This document shows positions 1 to 2,410 of a stretch of DNA of 41,709 nt, in pieces; position 1 is the first letter of the stretch; each line of letters opens with the position of its first letter. The notes under the pieces were generated by a model, which was given only the letters and a program-made list of their open reading frames with translations, was not told the origin of the DNA and ran no database searches. The DNA comes from an uncultured cyanobacterium (GTDB lineage Bacteria > Cyanobacteriota > Cyanobacteriia > PCC-6307 > Cyanobiaceae). The translations under genes were made by a program, and so were the position numbers. The stretch covers positions 1 through 41,709 of the forward strand of contig CAIZOZ010000364.1 of assembly GCA_903934745.1 (NCBI GenBank), in the 5' to 3' direction.

Positions 1-726
1 CAGCCATTCCTGGGGAACGGAGCTGGAGCCATGCATCACCAGGTGGGTGTTGGGGATGGCCTTATGGATCTCGGCGATGCGGCTGATCGCCAACACTTCA
101 CCGGTGGGCTTGCGGGTGAACTTGTAGGCGCCGTGGCTGGTACCGATGGCGATCGCCAGGGCATCAACCTTGGTTTTGGCGACGAAATCAGCCGCCTCGG
201 CCGGGTCGGTGAGCAGCTGGGAGTGGTCGAGGGTGCCCTCAAAGCCGTGGCCGTCTTCCGCTTCGCCCTGGCCGGTTTCCAGAGAACCAAGGCAACCCAG
301 TTCGCCCTCGACGCTCACACCGATGGCATGGGCCACGTCCACCACTTCCTTGGTGACGGCCACGTTGTACTCGTAGCTGGCCGGCGTCTTGGCATCGGCT
401 TCGAGCGAGCCGTCCATCATCACGGAGGTGAAGCCGTTGGCAGCGGCGCCGTAGCAGGTGGCGGGGCTGTTGCCGTGGTCCTGGTGCATCACCACCGGAA
501 TTTCGGGATAGGTTTCCACCGCCGCCAGGATCAGGTGGCGCAGGAAGCTTTCGCCGGCGTACTGGCGGGCACCGCGGGAGGCCTGCAGGATGACGGGGCT
601 GTCCGTCTCGGCGGCCGCCTCCATGATCGCCTGCACCTGCTCCAGGTTGTTGACATTGAAGGCCGGAATGCCGTAGCCGTTCTCGGCGGCGTGGTCAAGC
701 AGCAGCCGAAGCGGGACGAGCGCCAT
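1..726 (-). CDS. fba: Class II fructose-bisphosphate aldolase (C-terminus beyond window)
   Basis: Reverse-strand translation [38 protein letters not shown]...[11 protein letters not shown]...SVMMDGS...GVSVEGELG...[11 protein letters not shown]; typical class II FBA. Truncated by window edge, so absent from the ORF track. Confidence 0.95.
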
Positions 727-871: not shown

Positions 872-896
872 GAAAAAAGCCCCGCGTAGGCGGGGC
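872..896 (-). terminator. Rho-independent terminator downstream of the 37-aa small ORF
   Basis: Minus strand GCCCCGC-CTAC-GCGGGGC followed by TTTTTT (plus strand aaaaaagccccgcgtaggcggggc). Confidence 0.85.
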
Positions 897-929: not shown

Positions 930-1043
930 TCAGCCGATCAGCTCCTGCTTGCGCAGGTTCTGAACGCTGAACGCGAGCTCCCGGGCAGCGCGGCGGGCCG
1001 CTTCGGCCTGACGCACCAATTGCCTGGCGATGGTGATGGACAT
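930..1043 (-). CDS. Riboswitch-linked small Arg-rich protein, 37 aa ([37 protein letters not shown])
   Basis: ATG to TGA open frame preceded by a strong Shine-Dalgarno (CACCGGAGGCACTTCCATG); flanked upstream by a structured leader and downstream by an intrinsic terminator. Below the ORF-track length cutoff. Confidence 0.75.
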
Positions 1044-1090
1044 GGAAGTGCCTCCGGTGAAACCCTGGGACCTGAGTCCAAGGTGGGTGG

Positions 1091-1174
1091 ATGGCGCGTT
1101 GCTTCGGGGGAAGAACCGGAACCCGGCCTCCCCCTACTTCCGCCGGGCGAACAGGACGCCGACCGGTCAACGAT
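1091..1174 (-). promoter_or_regulatory. glnA / Downstream-peptide family glutamine riboswitch
   Basis: Minus strand ATCGTTGACCGGTCGGCGTCCTGTTCGCCCGGCGGAAGTAGGGGGAGGCCGGGTTCCGGTTCTTCCCCCGAAGCAACGCGCC. Shows CGTTG/CAACG closing pairing, GGCG..CGCC hairpin, the GGAAGTAGG core, GGGGGAG..CTTCCCC helix with inner CCGG..CCGG, and terminal CGAAGsAACGC. Confidence 0.82.
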
Positions 1175-1180
1175 GGCTAA

Positions 1181-1186
1181 ATAGTA
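1181..1186 (-). promoter_or_regulatory. Candidate -10 element (TACTAT) for the riboswitch/small-ORF transcript
   Basis: TACTAT on the minus strand lies just upstream of the riboswitch 5' end. Confidence 0.4.
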
Positions 1187-1312
1187 GCGGTTGTTACCGA
1201 ATTTAGGCGCTGTTGGCGGCTACCGGTTTTCGGTCAATCATCTCCATGCAGGCAGACCTTGGCCTGCCTGCTTCACTCAGGCGACCGTGGGCTTCGCCGT
1301 TGGCTGCTGGAT

Positions 1313-2410
1313 TCAGGAAACTGGCACTGGGCCCCGGGCCTGATCGCAGCCGTACTGGCTGCTCGCCGCCTCCGCCAGCCCGGGCACCATCGGCCGCCCC
1401 TGCTGAATCGCCTCCGCCCACCAACCGATCAGCCGTCGCACCGGGGCAATGCGCCCGTCCGCCCAGGTGCGGGGGAAGGCCAGCTCGGGGCTGGGCTCGA
1501 TGGGGCGCAACGCCTCGCCCGGTTTGGCCAGCCACAGCTGGAAACCATGCACATAGTCGTTCTGATTGTTGGAACCCAGCACCAGCGTGGCCTCGCTGCC
1601 GTAGAGCTCTAGCCAGCAGCCTCGCCCCTGGCGAGCCACCGAGCTGAGGGTGAGCTGGGCTGGCACCGAGCGACCCCAGCGATCGTGCAGATCCAGTTGG
1701 ATCAGGGCCAAGTCCTCAGCATCAACGGCGGCCAGGCTGCCTGGCGATGCGGGAAGCGGTCGCTGGCGAATTGCCGTGCTCAGCCGGGCCTGAACCTGGC
1801 TGCTGGGGCCGATCAGCCAGTGCAGGATGTCGAAGGCATGGGTGCCGAGGGCGCCGAGCACCCCACCACCGCTAGCCGCCTCGGAATACCAGTTGAAGGG
1901 GCGGCTGGCATCGGCGCGGCTGCTCATCAGCCAGTCGAACTTGACCAGCCAGGGCTCCCCCAACACGCCGTCATCCAGCAGCAGCGCCAGTTGCTGGAAC
2001 AGCGGTACCGCCCGATATTCAAAATCCACCGCCACACAGCGGCGCTGCTGAATCGCCAGCCGCTGCAGCTCCGCCACCCCAGCAGCATCGAGGGCCACGG
2101 GCTTTTCGAGCAACAGGTGCTTGCCGGCTCGGAGGGCGGCACTGGCCAGGGCCTGGCGTGGTGCCGGCGGCGTGGCGATTACGATCGCGTCGATGGTGGG
2201 ATCGGCGAGCAGGGCCTCGAAATCCGTGGTGCCTGGCAAGCCGGAGCTGGCGCAGGCGACATCGAGACGCTGCTGGCGCGGATGCCAGAGGGCCACCGGT
2301 TCGGTGGCAGGGCAATCGCGCAGGGCGGGTAGATGCACTTTTTCGCCGAAGCCAAGGCCGGCGATCGCCACCCGCAGTGCCCGCGGTTGCTCCAGGCAGA
2401 GGCTGGTCAT
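1313..2410 (-). CDS. Gfo/Idh/MocA family oxidoreductase
   Basis: N-terminal Rossmann VAIAGLGFGEKVHLPALRD, EKPVALD motif, GGGVLGALGTHAFDILHWL. Confidence 0.9.
   Translation of the reverse strand: MTSLCLEQPRALRVAIAGLGFGEKVHLPALRDCPATEPVALWHPRQQRLDVACASSGLPGTTDFEALLADPTIDAIVIATPPAPRQALASAALRAGKHLLLEKPVALDAAGVAELQRLAIQQRRCVAVDFEYRAVPLFQQLALLLDDGVLGEPWLVKFDWLMSSRADASRPFNWYSEAASGGGVLGALGTHAFDILHWLIGPSSQVQARLSTAIRQRPLPASPGSLAAVDAEDLALIQLDLHDRWGRSVPAQLTLSSVARQGRGCWLELYGSEATLVLGSNNQNDYVHGFQLWLAKPGEALRPIEPSPELAFPRTWADGRIAPVRRLIGWWAEAIQQGRPMVPGLAEAASSQYGCDQARGPVPVS

What the first reader, a model, noticed from the sequence alone, without database searches (positions are those of the whole stretch)
930..1174. 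Glutamine-riboswitch-controlled, unannotated 37-aa Arg-rich peptide with its own terminator
Seen in sequence: minus-strand leader carries the core of the glnA/Downstream-peptide RNA family (GGAAGTAGG; CGAAGsAACGC), with closing helix CGTTG/CAACG and two internal hairpins. It is followed by a strong SD, a 37-codon ORF and a rho-independent terminator (872-896), making a compact monocistronic unit upstream of fba. Established knowledge: glnA and Downstream-peptide RNAs bind L-glutamine; in Synechocystis a glnA RNA controls the glutamine synthetase inactivating factor gene gifB. Inference: the basic, Ala/Arg/Gln-rich helical peptide ([18 protein letters not shown]) may be a nitrogen-status effector, for example a minimal glutamine synthetase inhibitor or another enzyme-binding peptide.
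Basis: partly seen in the sequence, partly recalled or inferred. Interest (0 to 1): 0.85.

Follow-up and report, generated by a model that had tools for sequence, protein, structure and literature searches.

The report
Glutamine-riboswitch-controlled 37-residue picocyanobacterial peptide
Freshwater picocyanobacteria carry an apparently undescribed, conserved 37-residue helical peptide whose production appears to be switched on only when nitrogen is plentiful, by a glutamine-sensing RNA plus an NtcA-repressor site, and it may take the place of the small nitrogen-enzyme inhibitors that this lineage lacks.

Summary
The minus strand at 1174-1093 is a glutamine-I riboswitch (Rfam RF01739, 40.6 bits, cut-off 35), the only glutamine riboswitch found in this genome. 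It precedes a 37-codon ORF (1043-930) with a strong SD and a terminator (896-879). The ORF is a real gene: 38 of 401 family genomes (6 genera) encode an intact homologue, exactly 37 codons wherever read, under purifying selection (dN/dS about 0.33), beside the same neighbour, fba. One genus (10 genomes) carries a related 39-residue version elsewhere. All 44 loci examined have GTAN8TAC overlapping a TAN3T -10 element, the geometry of an NtcA-repressed promoter; the window contains this motif only here. A conserved helix pairs the sequence just after the aptamer with the SD. NtcA repression plus a glutamine ON switch means expression in nitrogen excess, the logic of gifB/IF17. Tests did not place the peptide in IF7/IF17, PirA or DUF4278. 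IF7 and PirA were not found in about 90 genomes of this family, and this genome has no DUF4278. The peptide is predicted to be one basic helix. GS inhibition is plausible but unshown; a PII target is the main rival. New small-protein family under a known riboswitch class.

The parts
1184..1197 (-). NtcA-type box GTAACAACCGCTAC (GTAN8TAC)
   Evidence: Only GTAN8TAC in the window; present in 44 of 44 homologous loci while most of the inner 8 bases vary.
1181..1186 (-). Putative -10 element TACTAT overlapping the NtcA box
   Evidence: TACNNT in 44 of 44 loci. Not found by the sigma-70 scan, as there is no -35; overlap with the box suggests NtcA acts as repressor (inference).
1093..1174 (-). Glutamine-I (glnA) riboswitch aptamer
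   Evidence: RF01739, 40.6 bits > 35, E 1.5e-5; P1 and core invariant or nearly so in the alignment of 31 leaders.
1089..1095 (-). Anti-SD strand GCC-A-TCC immediately 3' of the aptamer P1
   Evidence: Helix with the SD: 88% of cells paired across 31 leaders, G-C to A-U double change in 7 sequences; with P1, slid registers pair 29-53%.
1050..1055 (-). Shine-Dalgarno sequence GGAGGC
   Evidence: Seen directly; conserved a few bases before ATG in the homologues.
930..1043 (-). 37-aa small-protein gene (peptide P0001)
   Evidence: 22 homologues of exactly 37 codons in the first set, no indels, median dN/dS 0.33; 38 intact homologues in 401 family genomes; predicted single helix, pLDDT 94.
879..896 (-). 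Intrinsic terminator GCCCCGC-CTAC-GCGGGGC followed by T6
   Evidence: most homologous loci have a GC hairpin with a T run after the ORF.
1..726 (-). fba, class II fructose-bisphosphate aldolase (downstream neighbour, runs off the contig)
   Evidence: PF01116, E 3.7e-76; syntenic.
1313..2410 (-). Gfo/Idh/MocA oxidoreductase (upstream neighbour)
   Evidence: PF01408, E 1.5e-24; syntenic in most loci.

Best explanation
This is a free-standing nitrogen-excess gene. Under nitrogen starvation NtcA bound to 2-oxoglutarate sits on the box that overlaps the -10 element and blocks transcription (inferred from site geometry). When nitrogen is ample the mRNA is made; its leader folds into a glutamine-I aptamer, and the sequence just after the aptamer's P1 pairs with the SD. 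Glutamine binding at the terminal P1 G:C pair, whose G can be the first base of the anti-SD strand, frees the SD and turns translation on (the helix is shown by comparison; the switching is inferred). The product is a 37-residue basic amphipathic helix that binds and damps a nitrogen-assimilation protein, replacing in these picocyanobacteria the IF7/IF17 and PirA regulators that they lack. The likeliest target is glutamine synthetase (about 35%), then PII (about 20%). The confidence given is for 'nitrogen-excess-induced small-protein effector', not for the target.
For: Riboswitch above Rfam cut-off, the only one found in the genome. Conserved 37-codon gene, dN/dS about 0.33, fixed synteny. NtcA box on the -10 in 44/44 loci; the pirA and gifA/B promoters have NtcA sites close to the TSS with a repressive role (PMC8092223). 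The anti-SD helix is conserved, with double changes in two separate groups of sequences. IF7 and PirA profiles find nothing convincing in about 90 family genomes but strong hits in most other cyanobacterial families; no DUF4278 in this genome. In other families the same riboswitch precedes IF17-type and DUF4278-PirA genes. The related 39-aa peptide in another genus, at a different place, has the same promoter-riboswitch-peptide layout. The literature reports glutamine riboswitches as ON switches (PMC6316151, PMC6698751).
Against: No expression, binding or activity data. No sequence similarity to any known nitrogen regulator. The cassette was lost cleanly in two clades of the genus, so it is dispensable there. 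Three loci keep an intact peptide without the aptamer. Simple folding does not show P1 and the anti-SD helix excluding each other; forcing P1 even raises anti-SD pairing in many leaders. The TSS is unknown.
Confidence: 0.72

Rival explanations
1. The peptide is a PirA analogue: it binds PII and alters its partners (NAGK, PipX/NtcA) instead of inhibiting GS.
For: PirA is a small, NtcA-repressed, basic protein (PMC8092223); PirA-domain genes sit behind glutamine riboswitches in at least 14 genomes outside this family.
Against: No similarity to PirA above shuffles, hhalign 0.5%. PirA is reported absent from marine picocyanobacteria, which lack parts of the ornithine-ammonia cycle.
Confidence: 0.2
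2. The peptide targets another nitrogen-assimilation or transport protein, or a membrane, as NirP1 targets nitrite reductase.
For: Other small cyanobacterial proteins act on nitrogen enzymes other than GS (NirP1, PMC10907346, abstract); the helix is amphipathic.
Against: The direct glutamine sensor points to the GS product as the cue; nothing else singles out such a target.
Confidence: 0.2
3. The ORF is incidental; the transcript acts as a regulatory RNA or as a leader that gates fba.
For: Short transcript with terminator, directly before fba.
Against: Exact 37-codon conservation and dN/dS about 0.33; fba has its own intergenic region in cassette-less genomes; the 39-aa version is not next to fba; a terminator separates the two genes.
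Confidence: 0.06
4. The peptide is a distant true member of the IF7/IF17 family, diverged beyond detection.
For: Both are small basic proteins; A-R-x-L with a basic residue 11 positions after the R occurs in both (seen by eye).
Against: Not above shuffles with an IF profile; no C-terminal IF domain; the NCBIfam IF7A model does not match.
Confidence: 0.08

Closest known systems
gifB/IF17 unit of Synechocystis (glutamine-I riboswitch + NtcA repression)
   Same: Same riboswitch class, same promoter logic, small basic product.
   Different: IF17 is 149 aa with a DUF4278 N-terminus and an IF7-like C-terminus; this peptide is 37 aa with neither.
PMM1846-type DUF4278 genes under glutamine riboswitches (marine picocyanobacteria)
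   Same: Picocyanobacterial small protein after a glutamine riboswitch, with an NtcA motif in the promoter.
   Different: Those encode DUF4278 of about 7 kDa; this is a 37-mer predicted all-helical, under glutamine-I.
PirA (PII-interacting regulator, 51 aa)
   Same: Small, basic, NtcA-repressed type of promoter.
   Different: No sequence similarity; the 51-aa PirA of Synechocystis is not reported as riboswitch-controlled in the paper read.
Downstream-peptide (glutamine-II) ORFs of 17-100 aa (Weinberg 2010)
   Same: Short unassigned ORFs behind a glutamine aptamer.
   Different: Different aptamer class; here the peptide family is defined and traced.

Membership tests
Glutamine-I riboswitch (RF01739) | Covariance-model score above gathering cut-off | tested here: met
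   40.6 vs 35 bits, full length.
Glutamine-I riboswitch (RF01739) | P1 closing helix and invariant core | tested here: met
   CGTTG/CAACG paired in 31 of 31 leaders; core invariant or nearly so.
Glutamine-I riboswitch (RF01739) | Selective L-glutamine binding | not testable with these tools
   Needs in-line probing or ITC.
Glutamine-II riboswitch (RF01704) | Covariance-model match at the locus | tested here: not met
   Own-genome search: best 14.7 bits, elsewhere.
IF7/IF17 GS-inactivating factors | IF7-type core (NF052599 or IF profile) | tested here: not met
   No NCBIfam match; hhalign 0.2-0.5%; peptide scores mean 0.8 vs shuffles 1.3 bits.
IF7/IF17 GS-inactivating factors | NtcA-repressed promoter | tested here: inconclusive
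   Box overlaps -10 in 44/44 loci; no TSS or binding data.
IF7/IF17 GS-inactivating factors | Binds and inactivates GS | not testable with these tools
   Bench assay needed.
DUF4278 (PF14105) | Pfam match | tested here: not met
   No Pfam hit for the peptide; none in the genome.
PirA | NF050139 or PirA-profile match | tested here: not met
   No NCBIfam hit; profile scores mean 1.9 bits, best 4.9, against a shuffle 95th percentile of 4.5 and maximum of 12.4; hhalign 0.5%.

The most novel reading that the evidence does not exclude
Freshwater picocyanobacteria replaced the IF7/IF17 and PirA regulators with an unrelated 37-residue single-helix inhibitor of glutamine synthetase (or a PII ligand), gated both by NtcA and by a glutamine riboswitch: a second, convergent and much smaller kind of nitrogen-enzyme brake.
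Probability: 0.4. Interest if true: 0.82.

Novelty: new variant of a known kind. Interest (0 to 1): 0.64.

Why it matters
Published work states that GS regulation in marine picocyanobacteria is unclear and that IFs and PirA are absent from them (PMC6316151, PMC8092223). This cassette gives freshwater relatives a concrete, short candidate regulator with a built-in glutamine sensor. A synthetic 37-mer can be tested directly on purified GS and PII.

Tried and rejected
IF7/IF17 kinship by hhalign and by profile against shuffles: none. PirA kinship: none. Solved structures: only chance-level helical matches. Viral contigs: no relatives, so no evidence for a phage-borne copy. Wider class: no hits outside the family (class genomes only at E > 0.1). 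A simple P1-versus-anti-SD thermodynamic switch was not reproduced. Leader gating of fba: rejected. Klahn 2018 (PMC6212724) and Tolonen 2006 (PMC1682016) are not held, so I could not check whether this ORF was listed there.

Full report
The observation. The window's only Rfam hit is the glutamine-I riboswitch RF01739 at 1174-1093 on the minus strand, 40.6 bits against a gathering score of 35. In the whole assembly it is the only RF01739 match, and the glutamine-II model has no match above its cut-off. It is followed by SD GGAGGC (1055-1050), a 37-codon ORF (1043-930) and a terminator (896-879).

Is the ORF a gene? Among 150 relatives, 22 genomes (this one included) carry it, each with a start, exactly 37 codons and no indels. 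Invariant residues are M1 T4 A6 Q8 R11 Q12 A13 R17 R18 L30 R31, and median dN/dS is about 0.33. Of 401 genomes of the same family, 38 hold an intact homologue (E below 1e-18) in six genera, one has a diverging copy without aptamer (G170) and one a decayed remnant without a start (G180). A class-wide sample of 393 genomes found none outside the family. A pattern-based scan of 85,488 species genomes gave 22 loci, including Cyanobium spp. CH-040, FACHB-13342, T1B-Tous, FGCU6, FGCU52 and Prado107. No viral copy was found.

Position and history. Wherever contigs allow, the 37-aa gene lies directly upstream of fba, usually with the Gfo/Idh oxidoreductase on the other side; in one subgroup (for example L049-L052) the oxidoreductase is not seen in the flank. 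In 20 members of the same genus without the gene, the oxidoreductase end runs straight into the fba upstream region, with no NtcA box, aptamer or ORF. A tree of the oxidoreductase puts these 20 in two clades, so two losses of the whole cassette from an ancestral state is the simplest reading. Three loci (G196, G244, G280) keep the promoter box and an intact peptide but have lost the aptamer.

A cousin. One other genus (10 genomes) encodes a 39-aa peptide such as MSIITVHYLQRHREEAARRAKELAYRRRVDLHEQSVSLG. In the six loci read it lies behind its own NtcA box and glutamine-I riboswitch, away from fba. The 37-aa profile scores three of these peptides at 14-17 bits; none of 5,961 shuffles reaches the lowest of them. 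The reverse search weakly recovers the 37-aa gene in G021 and G022 (E 0.009 and 0.045).

Promoter. All 44 loci inspected have GTAN8TAC, and 43 of them have it 10-12 bases before P1 (the other, G170, has no readable P1). The TAC forms the start of TACNNT, a TAN3T -10 element. Nine different hexamers and 18 different boxes occur, yet GTA, TAC and the final T never vary. The window holds GTAN8TAC only here. NtcA activates from about -41.5 and represses from sites such as those of gifA/B and pirA nearer the TSS (PMC8092223); a box on the -10 element fits repression. This is inference: no TSS or NtcA binding is known. The loci are related, so 44 is not 44 independent tests.

Expression platform. 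Immediately after P1 the conserved GCC(A)UCC can pair with the SD GGAGGC. With P1 included, 93.5% of cells pair in register against 29-53% when slid; the SD helix alone pairs 88%; one pair changes G-C to A-U in seven sequences from two groups. However, the shuffle control is mixed (fewer pairs with double changes than shuffles, more cells), and folding does not show P1 and the SD helix as exclusive. Glutamine contacts the terminal G:C pair of P1 in glutamine-I (PMC6698751), and that G can extend the anti-SD strand in the 39-aa group, so competition at this base is a reasonable but unproven switch. Published glutamine riboswitches are ON switches.

What the peptide is. No Pfam or NCBIfam match. 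AlphaFold predicts one helix over residues 2-36, pLDDT 94, without an alignment. It carries 7 Arg/Lys against 3 Asp/Glu and is amphipathic. It is not detectably IF7/IF17, PirA or DUF4278.

Why a nitrogen effector. In other cyanobacterial families the same riboswitch precedes DUF4278-IF7 (IF17-type) proteins and, as seen here, DUF4278-PirA proteins. IF7 and PirA profiles give strong hits in most of those families but only weak, partial hits (best E 0.01 and 6.5e-4) in about 90 genomes of this family. This genome also lacks DUF4278. The 37-mer is thus the only product found behind a glutamine riboswitch in this assembly, which is about 95% complete. Shown: riboswitch class, gene reality, conserved promoter box and anti-SD helix. 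Inferred: NtcA repression, glutamine-ON translation, and the target. I put GS at about 35%, PII at 20% and other targets at 20%.

Novelty. The riboswitch class and the regulatory logic are known; the protein family I could not find in the held literature, but Klahn 2018 was not readable. The paper library covers only open-licence papers, so an earlier mention cannot be excluded.

Noticed in passing
G147:C376 (L011), G108:C1 (L010), G102:C2, G115:C1, G129:C58, G142:C13, G141:C27, G134:C1, G121:C100, G139:C80, G123:C90, G136:C3, G094:C1, G096:C64: Glutamine-I riboswitches lie a few hundred bases upstream of PirA-domain genes in at least 14 genomes; those read (L010, L011) encode DUF4278 fused to a C-terminal PirA-like domain, parallel to IF17. 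The PirA paper called such extended PirA forms elusive and possibly misannotated.
   Followed up: partly
L003 (G139:C58:26333-25962, minus): One glutamine riboswitch precedes a 49-aa truncated IF7-like ORF and then a separate 50-aa PirA ORF, an apparent two-gene effector operon.
   Followed up: no
G102:C2:1066802-1067466 and G147:C360:12605-13269: Three RF01739 copies spaced about 300 bases apart in a row.
   Followed up: no
Upstream of the NtcA box in 22 of 44 loci (e.g. G035, L046): A second degenerate site GTATC...AAC, often GTAN8AAC, some 26 bases upstream of the main NtcA box; pirA also has two NtcA sites.
   Followed up: no
L142, record CALPNT020000003.1: A MAG titled Bifidobacterium breve carries this cyanobacterial locus with a 95% identical peptide; the record name is evidently wrong.
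   Followed up: no
L023 and L024 (G142:C76, G129:C51): Glutamine-I riboswitch upstream of a 140-aa protein with no evident relation to IF17, DUF4278 or PirA (not scanned against family libraries).
   Followed up: no
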